From contig NC_092575.1 of the NCBI RefSeq assembly GCF_037975245.1, positions 945,001 to 1,009,000 of the forward strand: DNA of 64,000 nt, read 5' to 3'. The position numbers and the translations under genes were made by a program. Below the pieces are notes generated by a model. It worked only from the letters and a program-made list of their open reading frames with translations, did not search any database and was not told the DNA's origin. This DNA is from Apostichopus japonicus (lineage: Eukaryota; Echinodermata; Holothuroidea; Aspidochirotida; Stichopodidae). Of the stretch, positions 16,901 to 59,300 are shown one piece after another (the first letter of the stretch is position 1; the number at the start of each line of letters is the position of its first letter).

Positions 16901-19363
16901 TAGTGTGAATGTTAACGACTATGCTTCGTTTACGCATCTCTGCGTTAAACTCTCGAAGCATCCGAATGCCTTTCCAGATTATGTCTTTGCATCGGGAGCA
17001 AACGACTTTGTTACCATCTGTCGCCCTATTCCAGAGGGTAAGTGCCTCACTCAGGAGCGGGGGGGGGGGGGAAGGGGATCAGTCGGAATGCTGAGGGTGG
17101 GGTTTCAACATGTGACTTTGAATTGAGAGAACTGCAAAATTGTCTCAACACATCCGAAATATGGAACGTCCCTGTAATTTATACCATAGTAGTTCATTTG
17201 TTTTTAATATAAAACTAGCGGTAATTCTTATTTATTATTATTTTTTTCTAGTTTCTCTAGCAATAGCCTCAAAAGGCACTTTCTAATTACAAGTTTTGAA
17301 CAATGGCGCACTTTGTAAAATAGCAATATTAAGAAAGGGGACGCTGGCGCTTCATATTTGTGGAAAGAAACACTTGGAGGGGCATGCAATTTTGAGACCC
17401 CCCTCCCACCCCCACCCAGACGGTGCCTCCCCTTGCATCTCTCTATCGATATCGAATGTATTACTCAGCCACTGGTCAATAGCTTAAATATTGGTTACAG
17501 AAATTGAAGGGTGTATGGCAACTCAGGGGCGTCGGAGCCGGTACGGCAGGTCCGGCGCAAAAAAAAAAGTAGGACTAAGAAAAAAATATGGCAAAAAATA
17601 ATCTGGGAGGTATATTTTTCAATAATTTTCAATAATGATGACGGCAAGTAGGCTAAATGTGATTACTCTGGCATGGCAGGGGTCTTGTTTTCAAGCTCGG
17701 GAAGTGCCATTTCCTGCAATCTGGGAGGCATATTTTCAAAATGTTCTCCATTACGCTACGCGCCAACCATGGTGGCGCGTAGCGTAGTCTGACCTACCAA
17801 ACATCCCCCCGATAATTATGATAGATGGCCACACTTTGATCTGCCGTACCAATCCCAAATAGCTTCCGACGCCCCTGCAACTATATCATAAATTCCTTTA
17901 TATTCTTAGCTTACTTCGTAGAGTGGCAAAATTTTAGTTTTTCCTAGCATCGATTACAGTTTTACCCTGCTTCCCTCTAAGCCCGATCAGTGGACGTCAA
18001 CTTTTGCCGTTACAGCTTACTTAATCTTTGATACGATAACCAGCGACATTCTTACAAATTTCTTCTTTCAATTTGTGACCTCAAGATGAAAGAAAGTTTC
18101 CTTCCAATAATTTCGTGTATATCAGAGATTTCTATCTTTTCAGGCAACTATTATTTTCACTTACATTCTGCAAGATTAAAGCAAACCTTCACGCGTAACA
18201 TATCACTGCGATTCATTTCGTTACGTACCATATTGGAGTAACCCCATAATGTAACCCCATATCACGAATTTTCAATTTACTTAATTATTTATGATTCTTA
18301 TTCCAACCCAAGCCCAAGTCCAAGAGGCCTCTGAAATCAGACTTCAGTATTATCGAGCCAGTTATCAATACGAGCACTCATCATCTCCTACGTCACGGGC
18401 CACGTCGACCTACCTTACACAAGTTCAGGTAGATTCTAGGACGCTCCCAAACTCCCAGACAGTAGGTGGGCGTAATGTATGGCGGATGATGCTCTTTCTA
18501 AGCCCACACCAAGATGGATCAGGTGCTCGTCTCATCCTCTCAAGACAACTGCTAAACACCAACCAGGCCTCGATGTACGTCGGTCCAAATCAACAGTTCT
18601 CCTTTGTTGCAAACAGGAGGTAAGTCTCGAGCCAATGGAAGGCTTGACGATACTTAGAATGTGCTGATCTATTGTGTGACAATAGTAACATTCCAATCGC
18701 GAGATAGAAATGCATGGATTACACTCTAAATTGGGTTAGTCGAACCAGGAATCATTCGTCAATGAGTGTAAGTTATTTTTTAAGAAGAACGTTGTTATTG
18801 TCATGTTAAATATGCTATAGTTATAGCAAGTGGTTCAACTGTTAGTAATTGTGTTTGTCGGTTGATCGGTTTTGTCATGGTTCGGCCTGCACCAGAAACT
18901 TCACATCAAACCCGCAAAAGATAAAAAGGGGGTGAGGGGGGGGGGAAGGAAACAAAGAAGTAAAAAAAACGATATTAAGACACAGGAAATGTCAGACTAG
19001 TTTTTCTTACTCCGTTTGCATCGTTACCTCAGTATCCACCTATACATATATATATATACAAATGAAAATCGTAATGAGTTGGAAAATCAAGAACAGTGAA
19101 AAAACTTTCAGCCTCCACCGGGATTCGAACCACGGGCCTTCCGCTCTGAACGCGGACACCCTAACCACTAGGCTATGGACGCTGATTGTATGTCCAGAGG
19201 TTCGAAACCGGTAAGGAAGATCGTAATTCCACTGTAGGCGTTTGCCACCTGTATCGAACAATACTAGTTCTGTTTTTGGTGACATATTTTGCCTTACTCT
19301 AGAGATCAAATATGATGCTAACCAACTCGAAATCATTTGTGATTCCTAAAGCCGGATCTCGAA

Positions 19364-19421
<58 letters not shown>

Positions 19422-43400: not shown

Positions 43401-46400
43401 TCACATCAAGCACGTCCAGTTGATGGTAAATAGCAACTTTGACCTTCTATGCTCACTTTGTTATTAACTTGATGCTTAATTACCTTTGCAACTCGTTTGG
43501 CAACCATATTATACTTTTGTTTCGAATTATTCAAATATTTGTATCAAGTTTGTTATATCATAATCCAGATATGAAATTACATGAGATGGACACTGATGGT
43601 ATATTGACCTTTTTAACCTTTACTAGCTATGTATGATTTCATGCAAAATTTAAGTACTTTCGTTCTGCCTGATATAGAGTTTAACATAACATCAACAACA
43701 ACAATAATACTAATAACGTTTAACACAAAACGCCAAGGCTGACAATTGCTTCTATCCTTTTTCTTCTGTTTTTTTAATCATACAGGTCTTCCTTTGAGTC
43801 AGCAAGTTCATCTGGTGCAACATAACACAAGAATCAGTACATCCCGTGCTGATCCTTCGAGCAACGTGATGGTTGCAACAGTGCAATATCTTCTGAGGTT
43901 TCCGCCATCTACATACATCTTCGCGGGGGATAATCCTCTTTGGCTACTGGAACTTTTTGCAAGTCAAAATGATGATGGAACGGGCTCAAAGAAATTGATC
44001 TCTCCCCAGCTTTTAGACCATGAACAAATGTACGAAGCCGTTCAGCCACGAGATGTGATAAGTTTCACAGCAAGTGAAAGGTAAAGGTGTTTGTACTATT
44101 CCAGTGTCAAACCTTGTCCAGTGCTTGATATACTGTATGTGCCATAGACCACTACTGTTGGGGAAGACGGGAGGTGGAGGGGGAGGGGGCAATATAGGGT
44201 GGTCAGTGTGTGAAAGGAAAAGGGATAACTTTTGTTCTCATTGATCATGTATTTTATTTATAATTCTTTGTTGCATGAAAAGTTATTTTCTATTTGGGCG
44301 GAGTTTATTTCTTGTCAGACAAAAGGTAACAAGTTAGTTAGTCTAACTCTCCTAAGTATTTTGAAAAGTGTCGTAGCTGCATACATATAAAAGGTGAAGG
44401 TCGATAGATGCGGACATTAGAAGTCCCTCTCTCCGGATCCATTGTATCTTTCCGCTTAAAATTTATGATAGTATTTCAGAATTGTTATCAAACAGTTGTT
44501 AATGACTAAAACTCCAAAGCAAAATTGTCTAGAACGCCTCGTGTGTCACAATTAATATAACCATGCATGCGGCATTGCAATTACAAATTTCGTTAATCCT
44601 CTTTGCACCAAAGCTTTGAAGCAGATGAAATTGGAGCTGGTACGGATCTGCCTTACATCTGTTCCTCACTTAACTCTCATCCTCTAGCAAATTTCGAATT
44701 GATCAATGGAGAAGACAATTTCATAACAACATGCGAAGAATTGCTCTTGCGTAAGTCTTTACATGCTAACATCACACAGAAAATGTATAAAGTATCAAGT
44801 CAAAACACACGTAAGACAGAGAGACAGCTCATTATTGCTCTTAATTTTTTTTAAGTAGCTTAACTGTTCTGTATTAGCTATTAGAATTAGCTGAATAAAC
44901 CGAGATCGGTATTGCACTGAAGGAGAAAACAAAATTAGACCATGAATCGGATGGTAGTTACAATGATTTCACTCTAGGTGTTACAGCTTCAAGCAGCACC
45001 AATTACATGCCTAATTGATATGGTCTTCGCCCCAAAAATGTAACCGCTATGAAAGTATTATTCAAGCAATATATGCAAAACAATCTTAGCAACGTAGGCC
45101 CATTTTTGTACTTTCTACCACTAATATCGCAACCGAAGCAACACAAGTTGTTTTCTAAAGAGTAGGCACATTGTTACGTAATTTCATCCCATTTATGGTA
45201 AATTTAACAAATATTCTTATTTTGTAGCTCACTCGCTCAGCCAAGAGGAAGAACAACATGCAGAAGGTATTGAATCTTTGTTGTATTGTTCATAAAGAGC
45301 CAACGATTGATTGATATATGTATATTCTACGATATCCGATTGAAGTGAACTTTGTCTCATGTTAGAGATACATGTAACTGTATATGTTCCTCCCAGAAAC
45401 AGAGCCTGCACCCCCAGTATTGTAAAAAGAAAAAACACAAAGTTGCCTCTTCTCTTCATAAATATGAAGTGCCCATTTGATAAAAAAGTGCCCTTTTGTA
45501 GAAATAATTACAACATAACAGTAATTTAAAGTGTCCTGTGGTTGAAAAATTACGAAAAATTGTAATTAAAAAGTTCACTTCGGTTGAGAAACACTCAAAT
45601 ACTCGAATTAGCGAATGGTAAGCGGAATTAGCAGCCTCCAAATCAAAGTCATAAGTGTCAATGCTCCTCGGAGTTTGTGCCCCTTCCCCAGGATCAACCC
45701 TCTTCGGCAATCGCCGCAAGGGAGGAAAAGAAAAATTAGCTTACAGTATTTGCCCATGAACACGTGACTCGATTTACGAACACAAGATATTACTCTCACA
45801 TTGATACAACAGCATCCAAGACTGCCGCATGCCGTATATGGGGTGATCCTCATCTGAAATCATTCGATGGCTATGGACATTCTTTTCAAAACGTTGGCGA
45901 ATATGTCGCCGTGCAAACTTGTAAAGATGACGAGCGAACGGTTCCGACGTTTCAGTTGTCATTCGAAACATTCCGAAGGCGTCCATCAATACCAGTGTCA
46001 TATATTCGAGAGTACACACTGAAATACAACGGCGAAGTTTACGCATTAACTCACCCGAGTAAGGTTTCCGTAAATGGCGTGACAGTAACCTTACCCTTCA
46101 CAGATCACAACGGCGTCAGGGTACATTATGCTGCACCCCATCAGGTAAACATTCTTGTACCCCATCAGGTGCCGGCATTAATTCTATTTAATGCCCGTAT
46201 TAACTATATTTAATGCCGGTATTAATTCTATTTAATACCGGTATATAACAAGCTCAAAATTCGCTAATGTGAATGGCCTATTTAATGCCGGTATTAATAC
46301 TATTAAATACCGGTATATATATACCATTTAATGTCGGCATATATTCATTTTCATGTTTTGATACCGGCATATAATTTATTTATTGCGGGCACATAATGTA

Positions 46401-49400
46401 TTTATGAAGGATATAAATGCTTTTTATGTCCGTATATATTAAAATTAATACCGTTCTTTAATTTGTTGAATACTGGCATATGAAGCTGCATGGTGATTGG
46501 CTGATAACTAATGTCGGTATTAAAAAGAATTAATACCGGTAATAATTTTAATTCATACGGACATTAAATCGCTAATTATTTCCCGTATGGCCTACCATAA
46601 ACGGTTACTGCAGTAAGATTCGATGGATGTCGTTTGACGTAGCCTGTATATGTTGCGGGTTTCCATAGATGTCATCGGTAGCTATGACGTAACAACCAAT
46701 AAGGTCAAATCAAGCTCTTCCAGGCTCGAAAGCTATATTTATGGGTCATCTTGAAGGATTTTTTAGGGTCTTATAGTTTCTAAAAATCCATGTTTTATTA
46801 ACGCTTTAGATCCTTACCACCGATTTTGGTTTAGTCATCCGTCTGGACAATCTACACAACAGTGACGTAACGCTTACAGATATATTTATGGGCAAAGTAT
46901 GCGGACTCTGTGGAAACTATGACATGGTTAGAGGGAATGAATGTCATTACAGGAACGGAACACAGGTGAGGTATTAATCAGCTATGCAAAGGTTTAACTA
47001 TGGGTATAGTCTCTATGTTAGCTCCTACAAGAATTCAATCATCTGAAGAGTTTGTGCTCATAATTTCCATGTTAGTAAACAGTCTCTAAGATATCACCTC
47101 CCCCCCCCCCTCCGTCCCCTCCCCGAAGAGTAACGGATATGTAAAAATTAGATACTCGATAACAACCTTGTCTTTGTTATGTAATTAAAAAACATATTCA
47201 TGGAAGGAGTAAAGTTAACACAAAAGCATGTTGGAAATACAGATTCGAGAATATAAGTAGATCAGGTAAGGTTTGAAGCTGCTGTTTATTTATTTGTTTG
47301 TTGTCGTGGTGTTTTTGCCCTTCATGAGGTCTCTAACTGACTACGTACAGAAAGGTGTTAAGGGAGCACTCCCATTCCCATTTGTTGTTGTAACTGTTGT
47401 TGTTATTGTTGTTATTTAACATCTGTTCTCGAATAGAATGAACTCTACGCTCTAAAAACCATTCAAATGTGATTCCATGAAATGCGTGCAAGAGGGCAAG
47501 GGAATTTAGGCGTCAGCGTAACATATATGTTGGTATTACAATATTAAGGTCCATAATATCAAATTAAAAAGTTTGGTTTATTGCTTGAACAGATGCAGCG
47601 TCGAAATGAAGAATGTAAACAAGTTTTCGTCAACGAATGGACTGATGAAACTCCAGACCTCCCTTACCCAGAGCACATTAAAGATTTTAGACCATGTGGA
47701 GAAGGTTCTACCCTGTATGATGAGGCTACTACACACTGTGGCATATTAAACGATCCCACAGGTACAAACATCACATGTATAGCGCTGTTGTTGTTGTTGT
47801 ATGAATTACACATGTTTTATGTACAGTTAATAATATTGCGTAGTGTTGTCGAGTTGCATATTATGTATCATTTTGTACAGTCTATACATCCTATGCTCGA
47901 CTGGTTAACACCTCAGCACCAGCAATAAACATGTTCCCAATTTACACGTTATGTCATCAAGTCTGGTATATCCTTAAACTCCCAACTACTACTCTCGTAA
48001 TACGACCATGCCCCCTGCCTTTACATCAATAACGTGAATGTATCACCATAAATATATTTTCATCATAAGTTGACAAGCATAGGCCTATATTTAAATATAT
48101 TAAAGCTCACAAATTGTAAATGTGCATGGTTATTATCTTAATTTATCAACAAAATTGTGGTATTTACCAGCTTTCTAGCTTAACCATATGTTTGCACTTT
48201 AACTCATACAGTAAGATATATTTCAAAACTATTGTGGATTCCACAGGTCCTCTTGCAAGTTGCCATCCATACGTAAGCCCAGATATATACTACAACAACT
48301 GCGTGTTTGATTTATGCCAGCTTCTTCCTTCGGCATCATTCTTGTGTGGTAGTGTGGAAGCCTATCTTTACGAATGTGTACAGGTTGCTGGTGAGAATGT
48401 ACAAGTTGGAGATTGGAGAAATTCTACACAACAATGTGGTAAGTCTACCGATATGCAATAAGGCGCATGTGTACTTAATGTACGAATAGAGGTACAGATA
48501 CAATCAATACTTGGAAACGGGCACGCGCACTGCGAATATCCGGATATGATACAGGTTACACCACACGTGTCATATCGCAACGAGAATTATCCTTCAATTG
48601 GACTAATAAACCGCTTTTCATTTGTGTCTATGCTTCATATACGTTTTGTCACGTGAATTAATTCCTATACTCATCTTTGGTCAGTTGAACACCTCCACAT
48701 AATGAAAAGTTATTACAATATTACTTGTATGTTACTCATGGCCCCCGTAATGCCTCCGAGACCCTGATCTGTGCCGCCTCCTCCCCCTCCCCCCCCCCTC
48801 CCTCCCCCAACACGTCAACTATCTCTCATCATATCTATACTTAAATGCTATCATACAAACACACATTTCAGATCTTCTCAACTTTATCACAACAGAACCA
48901 CAGTGTTCAGAGAACATGGTTTTCGAGAGCCGCGGGAGTGCCTGTCCTCCTACCTGTGCAGATCCAGAGGGTGTTCGAGAAGACTGTCCCTTCTCCTTTC
49001 TCGAGACTTGTGAATGTGCTGAGGGTATGGTATTAGATGGTACTGAATGCGTACCTGTGGAATCCTGTGGGTGTAAAATGGACAATGGGGTATATATTTC
49101 GGTAAGCCATTTTCTTAAGTTCTCTTTTCATTCTTCGTGTGGAATAAAGACCCATAAATCAACGATGCCATTTCAGCCGTATGTTTATTAAAGTAGAATC
49201 TCTCTATCAGTGACTATTAGCCCGAAAACCCTAAAGGAACGACAACACATGTCTTGCTACCTTGGATGTTTAGGTAACTTTGTGCCGTATACGTTACATG
49301 TAGATATGTCAATATGTGAAGATAGTGTTATTTACCATTTATCCAAACAGATCATTTTTCCGCTTCCTAAACTCTTCTGTAATTTCCGACACGTACCAGG

Positions 49401-52400
49401 TACCGAAAACATTCGACGCGGTCTCGCTGCCACCCCCCCCCCCTAAAAAAATTGTCCAAATAAGGATATACAACATACCGTCGTGCACACATAACACAGT
49501 GATAGAATTAGGCCGCTTACATCATTACTTACATTACACTTCAGACAGGCTTGCCGAGAGGGGGAGGTAACAGCCCCTGGGTCCGTGTTAATTAGGGGAC
49601 CGGAGACATGCGGGATTGACGTTAATGTATTCTCATACCTCTGTGAATGTACCATATGGGTTTATAGGATGACATACATGTCTCTCGAAATACTTTCTGT
49701 ATGTTAGCAACTCTTTTTATTCTCGTTCTCTTAAATAAAGGTTGGAGAAGAGTTTATGTCCTCCAATTGTTCGGAGTTATGTACGTGTGGTGAAGTATCT
49801 GGTTTAGTTTGCATATATCCTGTGACGTGTGCTGACAATGCCATGTGTGGCGTAAAAGGAGGACAACGAGACTGTTACTGCCAAAAAGGTTACGTGGGTA
49901 ATGGAAGATACCAGTGTATGGATCAAGGTATATACACTTTCTCATTATAAGGTGGTAGGGAACAGGATTCCATACTCAACGGGGCAGAATCATATTCTGC
50001 TTGCAAATTTGGAGGAGCCAGTCCATCCTTCAGTTTTACCTTGTGTGGGAAACAAACGTATATGAACACCCCTCCCTTCTCCCCAAATAGAATCCCAGTT
50101 TACCTATTTATAATTCTTTTCGGTTCTATAGGGTTTTAATCCCCTACCCCGACAGAATTTACCCCCCCCCCCTCCGAATGAGGTGGAACAACCCTCTCGG
50201 CTAACTTTTGAAGATTACCTGTTTACGTCATAGGTGGTAACTGTTTATTCGTTTGAGATATCAACATCCAATAAGTCATCCAGTTTTTATTTGAGATATG
50301 TTTATTTAGTTATTTTTATTTTATTTTATTCATTTTTTGGAGTAGAATACAAAACTTGCAGGATTTATGGCGACCCCCATTTCCTGACGTTCGATGATGT
50401 CTTCTACTCGTTCCAGGGGGGTTGTGTATATACAGCTGTTCATACGTGTAGACCTCTATCCAGAGGTGCGCCTCCCTTCCGAATCGTTATAAAGAACGAA
50501 AGATTGATCCCGGAGGAGAAATACACTTACACAACAGTTGTCCAATTGCTGTTTCAAAGTAAGGCCTACCGAATGGCTTATACTGGTCGTGTCACCGTGG
50601 ACGGGATAGTCATGGACAGCCGTTTGCCTTACTCAGACGAGGAAACTGGTATTGAGATATCAAGAAATGAAACGACCTTGGTACGTATCAGAATGGTTCC
50701 CTCGAGGTTATCAAGTTATTCATTTTACATATTGTGGTAGCGTCATCAAAAACTAGTCAGTCGTGCCTCATGCATGGTATAGTGGGATCAGTTATTTCAC
50801 CGAGCATATAGGTAATCAGGAGAATAATGTCTATTACTTACGAAAATACGACATATGTAAGTGACAGTTGGGGCAGGTGTAATGGAGTCGGTGGCATGGT
50901 GCTTATAGAAGTGATATGTTATCTGGTTGAAATGTGGCTCAGTGAATAACAGTATCGGTACATTTCGTATTATATATAGCCAAATCATTTAGACATATAT
51001 TATGGCTGTTACTATTATTACTATTATTGCTGTTGTTATTGTTATTGTTACTGATATTGCTACTGTTAATGTTATGTACTATATTTGGGAGCATATTAAT
51101 CATGTGCTGGATGCTATATGAGCCCTTTTCAGTTTGTACCATATTTGGGGGACATAAAAACGACACACATACAAGTTTATGATGATTAGTTTAACTTCTA
51201 TTGCGCAAACTCAAAAATCACTTTTTCATATTAAGTTACTTATATCTATGAATCTTCTTTGCATTAACAGTACCTTCGAAGTGTCTTTGGATTGGAAGTC
51301 AGCATCAGTAACGACAATGCACTAGCTATTAAACTACCCTCGGCATATTTCGGTAAAGTATGCGGACTATGCGGTAATGCTGACGGAAATGACGAAAACG
51401 ACAAAATGTTGCCAAATGGAACTTTGGTGAGGTTCAAGCTTGTGGGTTATTCACTAGATATTAATTTCATCTTCATAGCTTGTCTGACAATTGTCACTCT
51501 TTTTGGTTTTCAACACTTCCTTTATTGAAAGAAGAACCGTTTGGTAAGATGATACGTTTCGTCTGGTCTGTCTAACGGGACTATATTTCCAGGGGGTGGA
51601 GGAGAGGGGGGGGGCTTTCTCACTCTCCTTTTTATTGGTAATAAATAAATAAATTGGTAAAATAATGATAAATATATTTATAGGCTACTTCGATCATCGG
51701 GCCATATCTCAAATCGCAAATGTTATGCCGTCTGTTGTGATTTTTTATAAAATTATATCAAAACTATAATAGCTGTTTTCATGAAATATGGATAATGAAA
51801 TGGTACTTGTTTTACATATATAGGGCAAGAAACTACCGTTTGCCAACTCATGGGCTTTTGGCCAATGTGTTCCATTGGACGAGCCAATTGAAAACTGTGA
51901 AGATGGGAGTGATGATTATGCAGAGGCTGTAGATTTGTGTAATGAAATCATACGGAAAGATGGTAAGAATTAAAAGTTCTACTTTACAATAACGGAAGTT
52001 AAGTAGGGGCGGAGGAGCCGGGAATAAGATTTAGAATGCATGCCCCCCCCCCCCCCCCACCGAGGCATAGCAATAGGGGTTTCATTGAACCAAGTCCCCA
52101 CTCAAACCTGGAAGTAAACTCTATAGAAACAGAGTACAGTAAATTTTCTATATATATATAAATAAAATATAGTTAATTCTTTTCACACGTTTTCTTTGTG
52201 ATTCAGTGTCTACTAACATTATCCTTTTGTCTATAGGTCCCTTTGCATATTGTCATGACTACCAAAGTCCCCTTCCATTCTTTCACTCCTGTGTCTTCGA
52301 CCTGTGTGGGAACTTGCCTGACACGGAGCTCTTCTGCGCAAGCGCTAATCAGTACGTCCAGGCATGCGCAGATAAAGGAGCAGGAACAGGTCTCGACTGG

Positions 52401-55400
52401 AAGAAGGATGTCCCTGCATGTGGTATGTGCCAATACTTCAATTAAACATATTGAACACACGGGGCAGGGGGGGGGGGGTGACATACACCGTCCGTGAGTT
52501 TGTGAGTGAGTGAGCGGGTGAGTGTGTGGGTGAGTGAGTGAGTGAAAGCGATATGCAGCTTTAAATTTCACACTGACTTAAGTTTGTTTACAAAAGTCAG
52601 TTGTGTGACATTTATTACGTTTACTGTTTTAATAATATCAAGTATTTATTAATTTTAGCCATACAGATAATTTGACAATCCATGCAGATAATGTGCAAAG
52701 GTGTATTTCATATTTCATGTTATTCTGAATTTCACAAAATCTGATAGTAACATACTCGATCGTTAATAAATTTCCTACCTGATAACGTAATGTAAATATA
52801 TTTACCCCACCCCCACCAAAACAGAATTGCACCAGAAACGTGGTTGAAAATTAAACATGAAGACATATATTAATTTTAATATAAAATCAGGGTATTGTTG
52901 TTACCAAATACTCAAATTGAAATGAGAATTATTCAACCCCCCCCCCCCCCCACCACCACACCACACCAGATTCTCCTGCTTACAAGTGTCAAAATGTCCT
53001 CCATGAAAGCAAAATGTTTTATCCATTTCACAGCGCCGGTAGATTGTCCAGAAGGGTACACGCCATTTAAGCGGTCTTGTTATAAGTTTTGGAGAATTAA
53101 GAAGAATTTTGAGGATAGCAAATCGTTCTGTAAGGTGAAAGGGGGACATTTAGTGACCATCACGTCTCGAGAGGAAAGCGATTTTGTATCTGAACTAGCT
53201 GGGACACGACGAGTTTGGATCGGAGCCGAACGCAACTTCTCTGGTGAGTGGCAATAGTAATAAATCTTCAGTAGATAGTTCATATAGACAACGTTGCTAT
53301 TTGTTCCCAATTATTATTACAGAGAGAGCATGAGGTTTTAGCGGACTCTTCTCTGTTTTACCATTTGTTTATCTCGCACCCAGCCCCCCCCCCCCCCCAC
53401 CCCCCGGCCCTTCCTATAGAAAAAAAACATTAAATATGGCTATAAGGTTGGTCAAGTTACCATTGGACTGCAGTAATACCCTAAAATGGAGGCTAATAGC
53501 AAAATGTTCTATATACCATTACAGATTTTATGTTTTCCCTCTTAAAAATACGGCAAATTTGACCGTCTAAAAACTCTAAATATTGTCCTTGGTTCAGTCG
53601 GGGACTAATGACAGTCGTTGGGTTCATATACATTCAGTCGGGGAACAATTAGACCACTCCTCCACGCCCTGGACTTCCTTTCAAAAAGATTCATGCCCCT
53701 GACTAGATCAGTTAGGGAATTTAGAATTTGTCCCTCCACCTTTGAAATCCAAACATGTGCACAGCACTGTACGTACTGTTTTTAACATGGTTGTAATCTT
53801 CGTACCAATTTATAGCTTATTCAGCAATGTTACATCTTATTCAAGAAAATAAAAATATGTCGATCTTCAACATCAATATGATCAGAGACTAGTTTGTAGC
53901 TAGTCTGTTCCAGAAAGAACAGTTCGCGGAACTACCATGCTATGGCATAGACACTATCCATTTGTAGTGCACACTAAACTACGGCCGAATCCGAAATTTC
54001 ACCAGATGTTAATGTATCGAATAACTATGAATGATAAATTCCGATGATATGTTGTCTGCTGTTTTGTGACAGTCTTTGTATTGAAGCATTATAGTATGAA
54101 AAAATTGAAATGTATCATGAAACTTACCCGCAGAAATGGACGAGGCACAACGAATGATGGAAGCTGAAACTTTTATGGGCGGATGTTGGTATGTGCATTT
54201 GGTATAGGCTGCTGTTATCTCATATTCGTTGTCAAGTTCGATATTGTTTTCTATTCACCAGCTTCGTTCCAGACGTACAACTCCTCCGGTGATGATTCCT
54301 ACACGTTTCTACCGGATCGTATTCCCAGAGGCATTGGGTCTATACGGTTCAGTATAACGGCACGGAGTGACGCATACATCATACTGAGCCCAACAATGGA
54401 GCCAGACGAACACACACCTGTGTATGAAATTGGTAAGGCCTAACAATGCGAACTTTTGGGGATTATTCCAGTGCACGTGCGCGCTACAATATTGGTATTA
54501 CTTGCCAGGTGAACGATACCTACTTGACTAGACTTTCAAACTTACAGTTTCATATAGTCTCTGTACGTTTGCAGTTTCAGAGGCTAGCTGCGCAGGCAAC
54601 TTATTATAAGCCTGTCATGGCGCTCACAAGCGCCCTCACTTTGTATCGGTACCTACATGACTATACTTCCTGGTGTGTTGTCCGCCCAAACAATAACACC
54701 ATGAACAACCGAAAATTTCTTCCTAATACTTCAAGCACTCCACGCGCACTACAATAATGCGTAGTTGCAGGCAAATGCAGTTCTAGTTTCAGTTTGGTTT
54801 TGGGACATTTCACGTATACTTAGTGCTGTCGTCTTTGTACTTTATGTAACATTGGTACCTGTAAATCACGCCCTCATCACCTGACCAGAATCCACATACA
54901 CTGTGATCGTGTGTCATGGTATTCTGTAGGGCAATGGTATGCAGAAGTGCATGCAGGTTCAAGTTTTCGCATTATTCATAAAATAAATGCAGGCTTTGCT
55001 TATGATTATCCGCCACCTTTAACAGGAACTATAGATTTATGGCGATGGCAGCCAACTCAATAAATGTATACATCATATCATGGAATCCTGCAGTAACTTA
55101 ATCCGTACTTTACATTTTATGGATTCTTACAGCAATCGGAGTTAACAGGAGAAATTTCATCAGAAGGTGCATGGATTGTCCAGAAGAAGATTCAGAGCAG
55201 AAATACCTTCTGGGGGCAAATACCGAACAACGTTTCTATGTCAATTTTCGCGATGGTAACGTCCGCGTTGGTCGTTATACAATACGAAATATAAACCTTC
55301 ACTTCATTGATCAAAATCCATTCCGTGTGTATTATGTGGGATTCAAAACGGTTGGTGAAGCAGGCACGTGGAAATTCTTTGACAGTAAGTTACTCCATCG

Positions 55401-56329
55401 CTTTGTCTGTTATATATTAATGAATGCACTGGTTTATAGTAAGTAATGGTAGTCCACAAGCATAAAATGTAGCACTTACGAGGGCTGATTTTTGTTCACA
55501 TTGTGAGCTGGAAGTCTATCCGAAATGCCTCTTAATTAATGTGTCCCTTACTGTAGATATAAGTGTTTGAAAACCTTTATAAGGTCTTCTACGTGATTAC
55601 TGGGTCTCAGTGGGGTGGAGGTGGGGTGAGGGTGGGGTGTTACGTCATTATACTGTCCAAGTTGTTGAACTTTCCCTTTGTACTATATTGTTACAAAATA
55701 TTTGCTTTAGCTGTTGTTGTGCTTGGAATCCATTGCTTCCACGTCCATTTTCGGTAACTAGGGACACGCCAGATATCAAACCTATATCTCAGACATATCA
55801 AAGAAGAACAGTTTTAAACCCTACAGTTTAACAATATAAAAAGGGGACTTCGAACCTGGCTTAGCTATCAACACGAGGGACATTGAGATCAAACCTAGCC
55901 TAAAGCTATCACCAAAAAGAAAGAACATGTTAATCAAATCCGTCGCTTTGCTATCTAAACGAAGACCATGAGGATTGAACCTGGCATAGTTATTTACAAG
56001 AAGTTCATGAAGTTGTTTAAATATCTAGTAGATGGCTCACCTATATAGCCTTGCTGTAACTAAAGCAGCAAAATACTCACCCCCAAAATGAACGAAAGAC
56101 AGTCGGATTGACGTTGGGAAACTTAAATTTCAGACGTCTTTACTTTTTCCTTTCAGATGACTTTATGTGGCTGACTTCCGAGAGATGGAGTTATGACAAT
56201 TACCGATACGGAGAACCCAGTAACTACGACGGACAAGAGAATTGCCTAGAGACTAATTTCGATTCCAAGATTGGAGCTTGGAATGATCACTTCTGTAATC
56301 TCAAAAAGTCGTTTGTTTGTGAGATTTAA
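10919..56329 (+). CDS. Giant secreted modular protein: 17 novel modules, two VWD-C8 units, C-type lectin with inserted FAMeT domain
   Basis: Spliced gene of 63 exons by my assembly; coding length 10851 nt, an exact multiple of three, giving 3616 residues. Order: signal peptide (1-20); 17 tandem modules (20-2633); VWD (2633-2874); C8 (2874-2938); TIL and EGF-like (2938-3077); VWD (3077-3287); C8 (3287-3349); CTLD first half (3349-3419); FAMeT (3419-3560); CTLD second half (3560-3616). There is no transmembrane segment after the signal peptide, so it should be secreted. VWD-C8-TIL assemblies are known from mucins, VWF, zonadhesin and IgGFc-binding proteins, where they support multimers. All module borders are phase 1. 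Every exon has a GT donor and AG acceptor in frame, but exon use (all modules in one transcript, FAMeT included or skipped) needs RNA evidence. No ortholog name is justified. Confidence 0.78.
12172..14013. mobile_element. Composite hAT-like element with a nested insertion
   Basis: Outer ends: CAGTGGCGGATCCAGG at 12172 and its inverted counterpart CCTGGATCCGCCCCTG ending at 14013, flanked on both sides by TACAG. Inner ends: CAGTGGCGTAGCTA at 12606 and TAGCTACGCCACTG ending at 13901, with flanks sharing ACGCA. Two copies of a hairpin-forming segment (AGCGGAGCGCCA ... TTGGCGCGGAGCGT) lie at about 12688-12722 and 13732-13767. No transposase is visible. The nesting order is inferred from the ends alone. 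Confidence 0.5.
13190..13395. repeat. Array of short palindromes built on ACTCCAATGGAGT
   Basis: Repeated units such as ACTCCAATGGAGT, TAACTCCTAATA and CCATTGGAGTGATCACTC occur in both orientations over about 200 bp, so the segment can fold back on itself several times. The outer arms (GAGTGATCACTC at about 13220 and CAGTGATCACTCCC at about 13371) are also inverted copies. Confidence 0.7.
15339..17037 (+). CDS. Module 1 (exons 15339-15612 and 16904-17037)
   Basis: First and most divergent copy of the novel module. Exon A (phase 1-2, 274 nt) has the module core as VTIVGHSLWRSELYASREDT followed by YQLLDHEQ and ends at a beta-like FTTAL. Exon B (phase 2-1, 134 nt) has the Cys pair as FTHLCVKL and VTICRPIP. 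No linker exon follows; the donor GTAAGT at 17038 joins module 2. The introns hold no gene; 16105-16460 is repeat. Confidence 0.68.
16105..16460. repeat. TA microsatellite grading into a GCCGATATATA / AAAAAGC(C/T) tandem array
   Basis: After TATATA runs, the units GCCGATATATA and ATTAAAAAGCCG / ATTAAAAAGCTATT alternate many times to about 16460. It is a simple intronic satellite with no coding potential. Confidence 0.8.
17524..17877. mobile_element. 354-bp MITE with CAGGGGCGTCGG ends and internal hairpin
   Basis: CAGGGGCGTCGG (17524) and CCGACGCCCCTG (ending 17877) are perfect 12-bp inverted ends. CAACT flanks both sides (17519-17523 and 17878-17882). Around 17755-17785 there is a strong hairpin (CTACGCGCCA ... 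TGGCGCGTAG) related to the hairpins at 12.7, 13.7 and 20.6 kb, so these elements are one family. Confidence 0.65.
18313..19656 (+). CDS. Module 2 (exons 18313-18619 and 19520-19656)
   Basis: Exon A reads EASEIRLQYYRASY near the start and NVWRMMLFLSPHQDGSGARL at the core, ending FSFVANRR. Exon B reads DNFGPGTAYPYVCTELN and ends AITCSTIRLG, the same G-PY-C ... TC spacing as other copies. Three AGs six bases apart (ending 18312, 18318, 18324) are all in frame, so the exon start could also be 18319 or 18325. No linker exon follows. Confidence 0.7.
19048..19183 (-). mobile_element. tRNA-derived SINE
   Basis: Minus-strand 19183-19110 is a tRNA-like head of about 74 nt: A box TAGCCTAGTGGTTAGGG, B box GGTTCGAATCCCGG, and an anticodon-type stem TCCGC/GCGGA. 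It is followed by an AT-rich tail ending in a TA repeat near 19048. Mismatches in the acceptor and T stems argue for a SINE rather than a working tRNA gene. It lies in the intron of module 2. Confidence 0.65.
19369..19420. repeat. (TA)n microsatellite
   Basis: About 50 bp of TA dinucleotides between the SINE region and exon B of module 2. Confidence 0.9.
20396..20694. mobile_element. 299-bp hAT-like MITE
   Basis: Inverted ends CAGGCGCGTAGCCA and TGGCTACGCGCTTG (one mismatch). The 8-bp flanks are TGTGTTGT (20388-20395) and CGTGTTGT (20695-20702), seven of eight identical. The interior has a G-run, a C-run and the family hairpin (CGCTTCGCGCCAAC ... GTGGCGCTAC) near 20596-20625. Confidence 0.65.
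20808..21875 (+). CDS. Module 3 (exons 20808-21105 and 21739-21875)
   Basis: Exon A (298 nt) carries the full core GTSVWQIQMFASQHDDGTGQ, then QQILNPDQMAV and ends ITFQAIQR. Exon B (137 nt) reads GLGSDNGLPYMCIAFSKHP and ends VITTCDLIPQ. It is intermediate between modules 1-2 and the array copies. No linker exon is seen between it and module 4, so the linker exon arose with the array type. Confidence 0.75.
22070..22094. repeat. (ATAC)n microsatellite
   Basis: About six ATAC tetranucleotides in the intron before module 4. Confidence 0.9.
22396..23459 (+). CDS. Module 4, array unit 1 (22396-22702, 22862-22998, linker 23433-23459)
   Basis: First copy of the homogeneous array. Exon A is 307 nt, one codon longer than the next eleven, because its start reads EMLQIADQTPQ instead of DVPIADQTPQ. 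The core is GTPLWVLRLFASQNEDGTGN and the end FSGGER. Exon B reads MGLGSDFPYICASLEKNPDA and TVTGCQALPR. The 27-nt linker exon encodes FQQRPRPVV (phase 1-1). A degenerate exon-A relic follows at about 23699-23850. Confidence 0.8.
24094..25148 (+). CDS. Module 5, array unit 2 (24094-24397, 24557-24693, linker 25122-25148)
   Basis: Exon A 304 nt, exon B 137 nt, linker 27 nt. 'D-type' sequence (DPYDAMVDTTVVFNVGFSS) with the QNED core and a TPGGQFQLSGGER end. Exon B has LGKDD where most D-type copies have LGEDD. Confidence 0.8.
25781..26828 (+). CDS. Module 6, array unit 3 (25781-26084, 26234-26370, linker 26802-26828)
   Basis: First 'Y-type' copy: DQYDAMVYTSVVFDVGFSS in exon A, and IGPGSDFPYICASLDKNPGA with VFGQDDTVKGC in exon B. 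The linker acceptor is TTTTTAG rather than TTTTCAG. Confidence 0.8.
27461..28504 (+). CDS. Module 7, array unit 4 (27461-27764, 27914-28050, linker 28478-28504)
   Basis: Y-type. It differs from unit 3 by ADRTPQ for ADQTPQ at the start and GANMEL for GADMEL in exon B; the surrounding introns are almost the same. Confidence 0.8.
29136..30199 (+). CDS. Module 8, array unit 5 (29136-29439, 29603-29739, linker 30173-30199)
   Basis: D-type with the ASQYENGTG core (Tyr and Asn replace Asn and Asp of the QNED copies) and IPGRQFQFSGGER. The whole unit is nearly identical, introns included, to unit 6. Confidence 0.8.
30831..31895 (+). CDS. Module 9, array unit 6 (30831-31134, 31298-31434, linker 31869-31895)
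   Basis: D-type; exons identical by eye to unit 5. After about 31750 its intron switches to the sequence type seen in units 8 and 10, marking a recombination breakpoint. Confidence 0.8.
32525..33567 (+). CDS. Module 10, array unit 7 (32525-32828, 32978-33114, linker 33541-33567)
   Basis: Y-type. First half of the 3365-bp two-unit block that recurs at 35890. Exons are identical by eye to unit 9. Confidence 0.8.
33760..33957 (+). pseudogene. Degenerate exon-A relic in array unit 7
   Basis: Between the linker of unit 7 and exon A of unit 8, the translation RNVNVDFKDDSQERLW and, further on, PIIIFATSKNN parallels ANVNMRFTDTDPYDAM and VLRLFASQNED of live exon A. It lacks an in-frame acceptor and donor. 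Units 1-6, 8, 10 and 11 have the same stretch broken by stops; unit 12 lacks it. The homology is weak and read by eye. Confidence 0.42.
34200..35260 (+). CDS. Module 11, array unit 8 (34200-34503, 34667-34803, linker 35234-35260)
   Basis: D-type with MGPGSD and LPK at the exon B ends. The linker starts FRQRPRP instead of FQQRPRP. It repeats at 37565. Confidence 0.8.
35890..36932 (+). CDS. Module 12, array unit 9 (35890-36193, 36343-36479, linker 36906-36932)
   Basis: Y-type; copy of unit 7 exactly 3365 bp downstream, with introns also the same apart from scattered single-base changes. Confidence 0.8.
37125..37322 (+). pseudogene. Degenerate exon-A relic in array unit 9
   Basis: Copy of the unit 7 relic, 3365 bp downstream and still open for 65 codons. 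It has no usable splice sites in phase with its neighbours, so it is not included in the gene model. Confidence 0.42.
37565..38625 (+). CDS. Module 13, array unit 10 (37565-37868, 38032-38168, linker 38599-38625)
   Basis: D-type; copy of unit 8 exactly 3365 bp downstream, sharing its FRQRPRP linker and LPK end. Confidence 0.8.
39255..40299 (+). CDS. Module 14, array unit 11 (39255-39558, 39708-39844, linker 40273-40299)
   Basis: Y-type, 3365 bp after unit 9. It has ADQAPQ for ADQTPQ, and its acceptor region reads CTCTGAACAG rather than CTCTTAACAG. Its intron is slightly more diverged than units 7 and 9. Confidence 0.8.
40932..42000 (+). CDS. Module 15, array unit 12 (40932-41235, 41399-41535, linker 41974-42000)
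   Basis: D-type with the QYENG core but a TPGGQFQLSGGER end as in unit 2, so the exon is a mosaic. The linker ends RPRPDV. The intron after this linker no longer matches the array and has no exon-A relic. Confidence 0.78.
42437..43425 (+). CDS. Module 16, array unit 13 (42437-42734, 42858-42994, linker 43399-43425)
   Basis: Diverged copy: core GTPLWMLRLFASQNEDGTGK, exon B IGPDSEFPYICASLEKNPDA and AVTGCEALPR, linker FSHQARPVD. The acceptor is TGTTCCAG. The introns are unrelated to units 1-12, so this is outside the recent duplications. Confidence 0.76.
43786..45266 (+). CDS. Module 17, array unit 14 (43786-44080, 44614-44750, linker 45228-45266)
   Basis: Most diverged C-terminal copy: NPLWLLELFASQNDDGTGSK then LLDHEQMYEAV; exon B IGAGTDLPYICSSLNSHP with ITTCEELLL. 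Its linker exon is longer (39 nt) and acidic (SLSQEEEQHAE) rather than Arg/Pro-rich. It joins at phase 1 to the first VWD exon. Confidence 0.72.
45747..47761 (+). CDS. VWD domain 1 (exons 45747-46144, 46810-46965, 47593-47761)
   Basis: Phases 1-0, 0-0, 0-1. The first exon has CRIWGDPHLKSFDGYGHSFQ, including the GDPH motif at which several VWD proteins self-cleave between Asp and Pro. The second has DIFMGKVCGLCGNYD with the CGLCGN motif. The third carries the end of the domain (WTDETPDLPYPEH and further Cys). About 240 residues in all. An in-frame second donor 24 nt downstream of the first exon (exon end 46168) would add eight residues. The first exon's acceptor GCTTACAG (45746) is chosen because it keeps phase with module 17. 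Confidence 0.85.
46165..46580. repeat. Cluster of ACCGGT-centred palindromes in the VWD1 intron
   Basis: Many variants of TTTAATGCCGGTATTAAT and TTTAATACCGGTATATA occur in both orientations over about 400 bp between two VWD exons. Several are perfect TACCGGTA palindromes. No coding potential. Confidence 0.8.
48247..48438 (+). CDS. C8 domain 1
   Basis: 192 nt, phase 1-1. It reads ASCHPYVSPDIYYNNCVFDL and later SFLCGSVEAYLYECVQ, ending QQCG. This is the C8 spacing (C...Y-NC-FD-C...LC......Y...C) that follows VWD in mucins and zonadhesin. It directly follows VWD 1. Confidence 0.85.
48872..49101 (+). CDS. TIL (trypsin-inhibitor-like Cys-rich) domain
   Basis: 230 nt, phase 1-0. It begins PQCSENMVFESRGSACPPTC, continues ETCECAEGMVLDGTECVPVE and ends NGVYIS. 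The Cys pattern and the G-x-x-L-D-x-x-x-C-V-P motif are those of TIL domains, here in the usual place after C8. Confidence 0.85.
49741..49927 (+). CDS. EGF/VWC-like Cys-rich domain
   Basis: 187 nt, phase 0-1, ten Cys. VGEEFMSSNCSELCTCGEVS opens it and CYCQKGYVGNGRYQC closes it. It links the first VWD assembly to the second. The left gene has a closely similar exon (1071-888), there followed by a lectin domain instead of VWD. Confidence 0.8.
50346..51962 (+). CDS. VWD domain 2 (exons 50346-50680, 51271-51426, 51824-51962)
   Basis: Same exon plan and phases as VWD 1; the middle exon is 156 nt in both. CRIYGDPHFLTFDDVFYSFQ keeps GDPH, and YFGKVCGLCGNADGNDEND keeps CGLCGN. The third exon ends in a Cys-bearing tail (FGQCVPLDEPIENCEDGS). 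The shared plan indicates an internal duplication of the VWD-C8 block. Confidence 0.85.
51003..51060. repeat. TTA/TTG trinucleotide-rich microsatellite
   Basis: Interrupted trinucleotide run in the intron of VWD 2; its reverse strand reads as poly-Asn/Ser, which is not a gene. Confidence 0.8.
52237..52422 (+). CDS. C8 domain 2
   Basis: 186 nt, phase 1-1. It reads PFAYCHDYQSPLPFFHSCVF, continues DLCGNLPDTELFCASANQYV and ends DVPAC. It follows VWD 2, but no TIL or EGF-like exon comes next; the gene moves straight to the lectin domain. Confidence 0.84.
52499..52550. repeat. GTGA-rich microsatellite
   Basis: GTGA tetranucleotides with GGGTGA and GTGTGG variants just after C8 domain 2. Confidence 0.85.
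53034..53243 (+). CDS. C-type lectin domain, N-terminal half
   Basis: 210 nt, phase 1-1. DCPEGYTPFKRSCYKFWRIK gives the extra N-terminal disulfide of long-form CTLDs; then SFCKVKGGHLVTITSREESD and RVWIGAERNFSG (WIGL motif). The exon ends just where the long-loop region should begin. That region is found only in the last exon, 2.9 kb on. Confidence 0.85.
53244..54261 (+). other. Intron between lectin half 1 and FAMeT
   Basis: About 1 kb with a poly-C run near 53384-53405 and no exon seen. Nothing else recognisable. Confidence 0.5.
54262..55384 (+). CDS. FAMeT / Methyltransf_FA domain inserted in the lectin (exons 54262-54432 and 55133-55384)
   Basis: Two exons, each phase 1-1, about 141 residues together. 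IRFSITARSDAYIILSP, VYEIG, then NRRNFIRRC, FYVNFRDGNVRVGR and FRVYYVGFKTVGEAGTWKFF follow the plan of the farnesoic-acid-O-methyltransferase-type domain (PF12248): A-x-x-DA-x-I-x-LS, Y-E-I-x-I-G, and the G-x-W-x-F end. In most animals this domain occurs in proteins without shown methyltransferase activity, so catalysis is not claimed. It lies between the two halves of one CTLD. Removing both exons, or either one, keeps the reading frame. Confidence 0.8.
56157..56329 (+). CDS. C-type lectin domain, C-terminal half, and stop
   Basis: Last exon, phase 1, stop TAA at 56327-56329. It starts DDFMWLTSERWSYDNYRYGE if joined directly to 53243, continues PSNYDGQENCLE, and ends with GAWNDHFCNLKKSFVCEI. 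It has an EPS triad in place of the EPN of mannose-binding CTLDs, plus ENC and WND, so a calcium-dependent sugar site is plausible. Together with 53034-53243 it makes a complete CTLD of about 127 residues. Confidence 0.85.
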
Positions 56330-59300
56330 TAACTTTCATACCACCGAATGCTACACTGAATTGAATTAAACAGATTAGTCTAAGCCTTCAGTCGTTTTCA
56401 TTTACAAAACAATATAGAGGCATATAAGAAAGTTAAAGCAGTGTATCCAGAGGCTGATGCTGTTGGTTCAAAAGACAAAACAAAAACTATATGATGATTT
56501 TATGCGAAGCTGTATCTACAGGCCATCACATGGCATTGTAAAAACGCTCATTACTCAACCAAAATATTGTATATCATCTCAATAGCTTGATATTAAACTG
56601 AGTCAGTATATATGGCCTGCAATTGTCACTTTTGAGTTAATTTAATTTTCGATTTATTAGTGAAAACGATAGTTTAAGGATGACATATTTTGGTATGTTT
56701 GACTTTCTAGAAAAAAAAACATGTTAGTATTTTATCCTTGTATATCATGTTCTTTGTAAAGGTTGAAACTACATTATATTCTAGTTAGAATAAATTTTAA
56801 CCCAATTGCTTGCGATTTGACTTTCATAGACGATCTAATGCCATTACGAGATTATGTTTTAATTATAAGAACAGTCCATCCATTATGAAGATGAATACAG
56901 ATTTGAATCAATTTGCATAACAAATCAATTTTTATTTTATATTTGTATCTTTGCTATGATATTATTAACACTTAAATTCTGCTGGAAATCAAACTTTCAA
57001 AAAGAATAATTTAATAAATATTCATGTTTTTCTTTTCTTCTCGTTCACGCAAAAATGCACGTACAGTTTAACACAACACTGTCCAATGATACATGTGATC
57101 ATAGGACTTTTCTGTGCTTAATACATGAAAGAAACATCCATACGCGGCCGGGCATATCGTAATCGGACAGGTAGAATTAGTGGAAATATTCATAAATAGA
57201 GAGCAGTAGATAATACGGCGCTCATATGGAGCAGCGATGGGTGGTGTTCAAAAATGAATGTCAGAGGCGCGGCCACCATTTTGTTCTGTAAGAAAGGGAG
57301 GGAGGGAGGTGGGGGGGCGACTAGATACTATGTCGTCGAGGGCAGGGGTGGCCACTCGCTTTTGAAAAGATTTGGCAGAATGGGAATAAACTTAAGGTGC
57401 AAAATAGTGTTATATTTTGAAACAACGAAGAATGGTTTACTGTTTATGTGCACATACATACATGTTATATATTCATGTACTGCACACTTGAGTTATTTTG
57501 TATTATTCTGTCGGCCAGTCGAGGGGTTCCGGGGGTGGTTGGGGGGGGGTATGACCTCCTTTATATTTGACGTGGTTGTGCAGATCTGATGAGACTTTGT
57601 ATATAGACCAGTTGTTTTGACCGCGTCTTCTGTTTTTTATTCTTTTTAATTACTCACTTGAGCTGATTTACCCTTGATTACATTGTGAAACGATACAAAT
57701 GACGGTGGTTGTCTGTAGCATTCAAATTTTATCAAAATACCTTATAAAAACACTGCACATTTTTACTTATTTCGTTCAACAGTCAGGTCTTACATAAGGT
57801 ATAAAAAAATATCCAAAAAGTTTTGATCACAAATATTGCTGAGTGTAAAAATGTGGGTATCCAAACTTACATATAAATGACACTCAATCTGCACTAACCA
57901 TAATTTCCAATTTTATTTTACAAGCAACTTTTTGATCATTGAATACTCTACCTATCAAAAAAACACAACACTGGTCATTTATTTAAAGCACCTGCATACA
58001 CTCAGTGTGACCACCAAATTTTGCTGAGAATCCAACGTGCTAGCTAATCACTGTATTGGTTAAAACTTCAATAAAACTTAAAAAGTCAGCTGATAACATA
58101 ACAGTTATCCGATATTTGGTGATGAAGTTATCATGTATTTAGCTGGAAGACTGCAAACGCAAAGAACCGGGCATATGTAAGTTGGTGTATCGGCGTTTTC
58201 AAACAGTCAGGATGCAGGTAAAGCACCTGTTTGGCTTATTATTACAATACTTGCATTCACCCAGAGTCAATAAAATTTCCCAACTTCCAATTAACTTAGT
58301 TCCCTTTTTTAAAAGCTACCAAAGACAACTTTTTTTCTTATTGTGCATTGATGGTTTGGTGACCATACACTATCCGGAATGAATGATAAGTTCACGGTAC
58401 ATACAAATTAATAATTCGCTAATACCCTATGGATGTATATCATATTAATTTAAATACTGATGTCACACTGATGTTTAACACATGCAGGTATATTAATCTG
58501 ATAATACTGATATGTTTCACAATATCATGTAACAGATGGTTTTCAGAGCAGAAAATATTAAAATTACATCAGGGTCATCTGAGATCATAGTTACTTTAAT
58601 TTCATGTTATGAATAGATTAATGATCAGTTTATTGTAAACATTCTTAGTGATACCATTAGAACTCATTGATAACATTACATTGAGAAAATAAATTTTAAA
58701 AATGCCGAAATTGTCTGCATGTTAAAAACATTTTCAAGCCTGTGTAAAATCTATAAAAAATGGCAGCAACCCAAACAAATAAAAGTTAATTCTGTCAAGA
58801 TGTAACTCCCTTAACATTGTTTTAGATTTTGAGCAAGACCAGGTGTAACATGAAAGATATAGCATTTAATTACACAATGTTATAAATATGACTGTGATTT
58901 GCAACTTGATATATGACACTTATCATTATTAAGTACTTTGTCATTCGTTGACAGTTCATTCACAAATGAATAACTCTGAAAGACTTTAAAGAAACATGCA
59001 ATTTCACTGCAAATAGTACTGAGTTTACAAGATTTTATCAACCTGGGGCAATATACATTTCTTACAACCCTGCAAACAGCATTTTCAATGATATCAGAAC
59101 AACTCAATGCATATCAGATTGTAAAACAATTAATAATAATACAATTCCTGTTATTCCATGATTATGATCAGATAACTACCTAAGATTAATAGGTGGAAAG
59201 AAAGTCATTAACAAGATGACTGTAAGCTGTTATTTGAAAATGACTCTCAGTGATTGTGGGACAATAAATCCATATAATGTTAAAATTAATCATTGTGAGC

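What the first reader, a model, noticed from the sequence alone, without database searches (positions are those of the whole stretch)
53034..56329. FAMeT domain nested inside a C-type lectin domain as a symmetric phase 1-1 exon cassette
Exon 53034-53243 ends after the WIGL motif of a CTLD. The remainder of that CTLD (long loop, EPS/ENC, WND, last Cys) is only in exon 56157-56329. Between them lie two exons that form a complete Methyltransf_FA-type domain. All three intron joins are phase 1, so the cassette can be included (lectin with a domain inserted before its long loop) or skipped (intact lectin of about 127 residues). This would be either a true nested-domain protein or a splice switch between two surfaces. 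I know of no established example of this arrangement, but I could not search.
Basis: partly seen in the sequence, partly recalled or inferred. Interest (0 to 1): 0.86.

Follow-up and report, generated by a model that had tools for sequence, protein, structure and literature searches.

The report
One domain nested inside a lectin
In what appears to be the Japanese sea cucumber genome, a sugar-binding-type protein domain is encoded with a second, unrelated domain set into its middle, and the same arrangement recurs in four sister genes, so it is an old, kept design rather than a sequence accident; whether the insert is ever spliced out is not known.

Summary
Exons 53034-53243 and 56157-56329 are the two halves of one C-type lectin domain (CTLD). 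The two exons between them (54262-54432; 55133-55384) encode one FAMeT domain (Pfam Methyltransf_FA). All three introns are GT-AG and phase 1. Pfam finds Lectin_C in two pieces around FAMeT when the cassette is included, and one continuous Lectin_C when it is skipped. Their cassettes share only 22-44% amino-acid identity and silent sites are mostly saturated, so the nesting is old and constrained. Nine of ten cassette-free split CTLDs examined carry a phase-1 intron at that same turn, so a phase 1-1 module evidently entered a pre-existing intron, probably once. Most likely the cassette is normally included, giving a two-domain head on a VWD/C8/TIL protein resembling echinoderm adhesive proteins. 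No transcripts, structures or other species could be reached; a splice switch is neither shown nor excluded. New variant of a known kind (domain insertion by exon shuffling); eight searches of one open-access library showed no description of it.

The parts
53034..53243 (+). CTLD 5' half (two N-terminal Cys, SCYKF, FC..GGHLVTI, WIGAERNFS), ends phase 1 with G
   Evidence: Lectin_C 36.3 bits alone
53244..54261 (+). phase-1 intron, 1018 bp, GT-AG
54262..54432 (+). FAMeT exon 1 (SFQTYNSSGDD...PVYEI), phase 1 to phase 1
54433..55132 (+). phase-1 intron, 700 bp, inside the FAMeT domain at YEI|AIG
55133..55384 (+). FAMeT exon 2 (AIGVNRRNFIRRCMDC...GTWKFFD), phase 1 to phase 1
   Evidence: found independently by the whole-genome PF12248 search at C15:1000135
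55385..56156 (+). phase-1 intron, 772 bp, GT-AG
56157..56329 (+). CTLD 3' half (FMW, GEPSN, ENCLETN, WND, last Cys) and stop TAA 56327-56329
   Evidence: Lectin_C 29.8 bits alone
52237..52422 (+). C8 domain exon directly upstream, phase 1 into the CTLD
50343..51962 (+). second VWD domain and spacer exons (50343-50680, 51271-51426, 51824-51962) of the same gene
   Evidence: VWD 106.8 bits; joined open frame
45813..49927 (+). first VWD, C8, TIL and TILa exons (45813-46144, 46810-46965, 47593-47761, 48247-48438, 48896-49101, 49741-49927)
15467..44750 (+). upstream tandem array of a ~150-residue repeat; its last unit (43786-44750) joins in frame to the VWD part, the rest is taken to belong by position and strand; no Pfam family
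56789..56794 (+). AATAAA, 460 bp after the stop (possible polyadenylation signal)
90..296 (-). CTLD 5' half of neighbour gene E, which has the same cassette beyond the left window edge (FAMeT exons within C15:944375-943042, CTLD 3' half C15:942925-942758)

Best explanation
The gene encodes a large modular protein (repeat array, VWD-C8-TIL-TILa-VWD-C8) that ends in a C-type lectin domain with a complete FAMeT domain built into the turn after the WIGL strand. SHOWN: the two CTLD halves, the two FAMeT exons, the phases, and the same layout in five paralogues; cassette-free CTLDs in the same genome have a phase-1 intron at the same turn. INFERRED: a phase 1-1 FAMeT module entered that intron once by exon shuffling, and duplication made the family. 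INFERRED, most likely: the cassette is normally spliced in, so the folded head is a discontinuous CTLD with FAMeT emerging beside the long loop that carries the EPS/WND calcium-site residues, the insert being joined by linkers of a few residues on both sides. It would act as a two-surface binding tip (lectin plus FAMeT) on a secreted mucin- or glue-like network protein. What FAMeT binds is unknown.
For: Pfam on inclusion forms: Lectin_C in two stretches and Methyltransf_FA over its cut-off in 5 of 5 genes (A 63.7, B 85.0, C 110.8, D 67.9, E 26.4 bits; cut-off 24.2); on skip forms one continuous Lectin_C in 5 of 5. The order CTLD5'-FAM1-FAM2-CTLD3', all phase 1, is found in genes A (window), B C15:19798772-19794063, C C15:20740817-20743909, D C15:925429-927358, E C15:945300-942758. 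Control: exon HMMs built from the other four genes find the held-out cassette in 5 of 5 (E weakest, iE 8.8e-5 and 3.9e-10), while the ten cassette-free stretches give nothing better than iE 0.75. Pairwise amino-acid identities are 22-44% for FAMeT and 29-53% for CTLD, with synonymous sites saturated in 18 of 20 comparisons and non-synonymous differences per site fewer: both parts look kept by selection. Cassette-free split CTLDs: 9 of 10 examined have a phase-1 GT-AG intron at the same turn. Tree: the five cassette CTLDs fall on one side of a branch (88/90; 89% of 200 bootstrap trees), with a cassette-free CTLD (C9:20472705) next to them; FAMeTs 74/91, 70%. Linkers: 2-3 residues between the FAMeT W.F(F/Y) and the CTLD strand in 5 of 5. 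The turn codon that skipping would form is Gly in 8 of 9 cassette-free phase-1 introns but Asp, Ala, Asp, Glu, Tyr in the five cassette genes. FAMeT domains occur in several sea star footprint proteins (PMC9382459, passages and section 9).
Against: No transcript or protein was seen, so inclusion is not shown. The skip form would be a complete CTLD in all five genes. The lost Gly is weak evidence: the five genes share ancestry, and the cassette-free CTLD grouped with them (C9) also has Asp there. Tree support is moderate (one starred inner branch of 14 in the CTLD tree, none of them on the cassette group), with long branches for D and E. E's FAMeT passes the Pfam cut-off only narrowly. No solved FAMeT structure was found by sequence and no model was made, so closeness of its ends is inferred only.
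Confidence: 0.74

Rival explanations
1. Splice switch: the two-exon cassette is skipped in some tissues or states, so one gene makes either a plain CTLD tip or a CTLD-FAMeT tip.
For: All joins are phase 1 in 5 of 5 genes, and skipping gives a near full-length Lectin_C match in 5 of 5.
Against: Two exons must be skipped together every time; symmetric phase follows from insertion into a phase-1 intron and is not evidence of skipping; the usual turn Gly is absent from all five. No RNA data.
Confidence: 0.2
2. The FAMeT exons belong to a separate or dead gene lying in the intron, or the locus is misassembled.
For: None found; genes inside introns do exist (general knowledge).
Against: Same strand, matching phases on both sides, no stop inside the joined frame, and the same layout at five loci up to 20 Mb apart. 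The published assembly that it resembles in size was built from PacBio HiFi reads (PMC10344927, passages).
Confidence: 0.02
3. Not exclusive of the best explanation: the cassette entered CTLD introns several times independently, so the site is a hot spot rather than one old event.
For: A phase-1 intron at this turn is common among split CTLDs of this genome (9 of 10 read); tree support for one origin is moderate.
Against: All five are on one contig; 4 of 5 have a C8 exon upstream; both trees allow a single origin; the internal FAMeT intron lies at the same place, YE(I/F)|(A/V), in 5 of 5, whereas the C4 and C9 FAMeTs have no such intron.
Confidence: 0.1

Closest known systems
Sea star footprint proteins (Sfp1, Sfp3, Sfp4a, Sfp5, Sfp7, Sfp8 carry FAMeT; PMC9382459)
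   Same: Secreted echinoderm adhesive proteins with FAMeT domains; the figure legend of the set also lists vWF D, C8 and TIL/TILa domains; role of FAMeT in the footprint stated as unknown. That Sfp1 itself combines VWD, C8 and TIL is recalled, not read here.
   Different: 'C-type lectin' has no occurrence in that paper's main text and its figure legend lists only a D-galactose lectin domain; no nesting is described in what I saw of it; expression of the window gene in adhesive cells is untested.
Integrin alpha subunits with an inserted (I) domain
   Same: One domain interrupts the chain of another, expands ligand binding and obstructs the older pocket (abstract of PMC10659397 in the listing).
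   Different: Unrelated folds; the host there is a beta-propeller (recalled), here a CTLD.
Tandem CTLD and FAMeT genes of the same genome (C4:425-434 kb, C4:567-577 kb)
   Same: FAMeT and CTLD in neighbouring exons, FAMeT as one phase 1-1 exon.
   Different: FAMeT lies between CTLDs (order CTLD3', FAMeT, CTLD5'), not inside one; single exon; a Cys at each end of the domain.
Cassette-free split CTLDs of the same genome (e.g. C9:20472705, C12:21261530, C15:14036952)
   Same: Same domain, intron at the same turn in phase 1.
   Different: No FAMeT exons in the intron; C9:20472705 follows an F5/8 type C domain, with no VWD or C8 found in the 8 kb upstream.

Membership tests
C-type lectin domain (Pfam PF00059) | profile match over the curated cut-off across the domain | tested here: met
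   skip form 74.3 bits, profile 2-106/107; inclusion form 69.9 bits in two stretches
C-type lectin domain (Pfam PF00059) | contiguous domain in the encoded order | tested here: not met
   interrupted by two FAMeT exons in the gene order; contiguous only if skipped
C-type lectin domain (Pfam PF00059) | calcium/sugar motifs EPN-type and WND (motifs recalled) | tested here: inconclusive
   EPS and WND in A, B, C; KPS/WVD in D, EPN/WSD in E; binding untested
FAMeT domain (Pfam PF12248) | profile match over the curated cut-off | tested here: met
   5 of 5 nested cassettes; E only narrowly, 26.4 against 24.2 bits
FAMeT domain (Pfam PF12248) | methyltransferase activity implied by the name | not testable with these tools
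   PMC9382459 says that outside arthropods its function is not known (passage)
Domain insertion (nested domain protein) | host domain exists without the insert in relatives | tested here: met
   10 split CTLDs read whole, none with a FAMeT hit better than iE 0.75; 9 of 10 have the intron at the same site in phase 1
Domain insertion (nested domain protein) | insert folds within the host in the mature protein | not testable with these tools
   spliced proteins are outside the stated rule of the structure tool; none was sent
Alternative cassette exon (splice switch) | skipping keeps the frame | tested here: met
   5 of 5 genes
Alternative cassette exon (splice switch) | both isoforms observed | not testable with these tools
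   no RNA data held
Sfp-like echinoderm adhesive protein | VWD, C8, TIL and FAMeT domains in one protein (combination recalled for Sfp1) | tested here: met
Sfp-like echinoderm adhesive protein | secreted (signal peptide) | not tested
   the first exon was not located
Sfp-like echinoderm adhesive protein | expression in adhesive gland cells | not testable with these tools
   no expression data
Sfp-like echinoderm adhesive protein | sequence homology to an Sfp beyond shared domains | not tested
   the protein database was off

The most novel reading that the evidence does not exclude
A family of echinoderm secreted proteins uses one conserved CTLD intron as a port: the two-exon FAMeT module there is switched in or out by splicing, so each gene displays either a plain lectin or a lectin whose binding loop is flanked by a second nested recognition domain. 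Five genes would share this switch.
Probability: 0.18. Interest if true: 0.82.

Novelty: new variant of a known kind. Interest (0 to 1): 0.6.

Why it matters
CTLDs are among the commonest extracellular recognition folds (general knowledge). A complete foreign domain set into the turn next to their binding loop, kept in five diverged genes, shows a natural insertion site and one concrete exon-shuffling route to it: a phase 1-1 module into a conserved phase-1 intron. It also places the poorly understood FAMeT domain, known from sea star glue proteins, in a defined position beside a lectin site, which makes its role testable.

Tried and rejected
Rejected: separate gene, misassembly, a second CTLD half nearby. 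Considered and not relied on: dN/dS, because silent sites are saturated in 18 of 20 comparisons; the loss of the turn Gly as proof of constitutive inclusion (P = 0.003 by counting, but the five genes share ancestry, the C9 relative also lacks it, and L034 and L058/L059 are near-copies); the Cys at both ends of the C4a, C4b and C9 FAMeTs (absent at both ends from the five nested ones and from C23, 9 rows), which hints that the ends of the domain lie close together but does not correlate strictly with nesting; a sigma-70 promoter and terminator scan, pointless for an animal gene. Rows dropped: the FAMeT tree leaves out the C11, C5 and C4:8617 kb genes (partial or differently split exons); the CTLD tree uses 9 of 10 split CTLDs (L058/L059 left out as a near-copy of L034) and 3 of 20 single-exon CTLDs fetched (L036, L040, L050). 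The ten split CTLDs were picked by eye (150 of 392 candidates scored there); of the loci asked for, six (C4:1122900, C4:545000, C3:2912000, C18:1586600, C17:5851000, C15:14091700) were never obtained.

Full report
What is there. The four exons named or implied in the finding are real: 53034-53243, 54262-54432, 55133-55384 and 56157-56329, with GT-AG introns of 1018, 700 and 772 bp, all phase 1, and a TAA stop at 56327-56329. Joined, one frame is open (stops in the three frames: 10, 1 terminal, 23). Pfam on the inclusion form gives Lectin_C in two stretches (69.9 bits) around Methyltransf_FA (63.7 bits; cut-off 24.2). The skip form gives one Lectin_C over profile positions 2-106 of 107 (74.3 bits).

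The gene. Upstream exons join in one open frame of 1111 codons from 43786 to the stop (17 exons): a repeat unit, VWD, C8, TIL, TILa, VWD, C8, then the CTLD with the cassette (Pfam). Further upstream lies a tandem array of a ~150-residue repeat, matched from 15467 to 44743, without a Pfam family (two units tested). The first exon and signal peptide were not located, so secretion is inferred from the domains.

Which genome. The window is C15:945001-1009000 of a 671,581,487-base genome in 35 contigs. The published Apostichopus japonicus assembly is 671.60 Mb (671,643,915 in its Hi-C table) in 34 scaffolds, with 23 chromosomes of 18.21-46.02 Mb, from PacBio HiFi (PMC10344927, passages seen); contig C23 here is 18,203,763 bases. 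The totals are close but not identical. I infer this species; no marker gene was tested.

The same nesting four more times. A whole-genome PF12248 search gave 17 matches, four of them in genes A-D. Fetching around the matches and scanning with tblastn and exon HMMs shows the order CTLD5', FAM1, FAM2, CTLD3' at five places, all on C15: A (window), B (19.79-19.80 Mb, minus), C (20.74 Mb, plus), D (925-927 kb, plus), E (942-945 kb, minus; its CTLD5' exon is window 90-296). E's cassette was missed by the PF12248 search and found by reading the intron. All joins are phase 1 in 5 of 5. In all five, Pfam splits Lectin_C in the inclusion form, joins it in the skip form, and passes Methyltransf_FA (for B-E, for A; E narrowly, 26.4 against 24.2 bits). 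The HMMs were built from these five genes and match them by construction; in a leave-one-out test the other four still find the held-out cassette in 5 of 5, E weakest at iE 8.8e-5 and 3.9e-10. A, B, C and D have a C8 exon upstream; E has HYR and TILa.

Other FAMeT genes. In the stretches fetched around the other matches (two C4 genes, C4:8617 kb, C9, C11, C23, two C5; 10 kb each, 30 kb for C11), CTLD halves were found only beside the two C4 genes, and there in the order CTLD3', FAMeT, CTLD5', i.e. FAMeT between CTLDs. Those FAMeTs are single phase 1-1 exons, as read.

Age and constraint. Pairwise amino-acid identity among the five is 22-44% in FAMeT and 29-53% in CTLD. Synonymous distance is saturated in 18 of 20 comparisons, with fewer non-synonymous differences per site. 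Host and insert have therefore probably both been under purifying selection for a long time.

The insertion site. Of ten cassette-free split CTLDs (L033, L034, L035; seven pairs, their intron interiors), nine have a phase-1 intron at the same turn, between WIGLND..EG and xFxW in the typical ones; one (L062/L063) has a phase-0 intron elsewhere. None of the ten gives a FAMeT hit better than iE 0.75. L034 and L058/L059 are near-copies. The split codon is Gly in eight of nine and Asp in the C9:20472705 CTLD. Skipping in A-E would give Asp, Ala, Asp, Glu, Tyr. In a tree of 17 CTLDs the five cassette CTLDs fall together (88/90; 89% of 200 bootstrap trees) next to the C9 CTLD; in a tree of 9 FAMeTs the cassettes fall together at 74/91 (70%). 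Support is moderate and D and E are long branches. The simplest history, inferred, is one entry of a phase 1-1 FAMeT module into an existing phase-1 intron, then duplication. The C9 CTLD's gene has an F5/8 type C domain upstream and no VWD or C8 found in the 8 kb fetched.

How it probably works. The insert sits in the turn after the WIGL strand, at the entry to the long loop that carries the EPS and WND residues (topology recalled). The links are short: 2-3 residues from the last FAMeT aromatic to the CTLD strand in 5 of 5. In A, B and C an N-x-S/T sequon lies at the junction; D and E lack it. Three non-nested FAMeTs (C4a, C4b, C9) carry a Cys at both ends, while the nested ones and C23 carry none (9 rows), which suggests, without proving it, that the two ends of the domain lie close together, as nesting needs. 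I take constitutive inclusion as most likely: selection keeps the cassette, and the usual turn Gly is gone in all five. The weak point: the five share ancestry, and the C9 CTLD also lacks the Gly. No RNA evidence exists here either way.

Known relatives. Sea star footprint proteins carry FAMeT domains, and the authors state that their role in the footprint is unknown (PMC9382459, passages and section 9). 'C-type lectin' has no occurrence in that paper's main text. Literature searches for the combination showed in their listings no description of FAMeT inside a CTLD; I saw listings (for 20 of 224 papers, for 15 of 56), passages of PMC9382459 and PMC10344927, and a term search without hits in PMC13114784. 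They cover one open-access library only. A protein database search could not be made and no structure was predicted. A PDB sequence search with the window's FAMeT found one match up to E 1, at E 0.91, not significant.

Verdict. Real, old, conserved nested-domain architecture; new variant of domain insertion by exon shuffling; splice switching open.

Noticed in passing
window 15467-44743 (+): Tandem array of a ~150-residue two-exon repeat: about 13 close units from 22407 to 42993 at roughly 1.5-1.7 kb spacing, with diverged ones on both sides, and near-identical units 3365 bp apart; no Pfam match for the two units tested. It looks like a recently expanding unnamed extracellular repeat.
   Followed up: partly
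C15:905-1001 kb (loci L009-L012 and window): Three nested CTLD/FAMeT genes (D, E, A) lie within about 100 kb, in mixed orientation; D carries three VWD-C8 units upstream.
   Followed up: partly
window about 2700-3000 (-) and 880-1060 (-): Neighbour gene E has a HYR domain (40 bits) and a TILa exon (27.1 bits against a cut-off of 27) upstream of its CTLD.
   Followed up: partly
L019, L020 (C4): Two genes with a single-exon FAMeT, Cys at both ends, placed between CTLDs: a tandem version of the same domain pair.
   Followed up: partly
L066/L076/L067 (C9:20472690-20473490): Cassette-free CTLD that groups next to the nested ones (CVETNF..GLWNDHFC), in a gene with an F5/8 type C domain.
   Followed up: partly
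window 45830 and 50357: Both VWD domains start with a GDPH motif; in sea star Sfp2 such a site is reported as auto-catalytic (printed there as GPDH, PMC9382459 section 9). Cleavage here is untested.
   Followed up: no
window 46170-46344 and 51013-51075: Short tandem arrays (periods of about 22-24 bp, and 6 or 30 bp) inside introns of the same gene.
   Followed up: no
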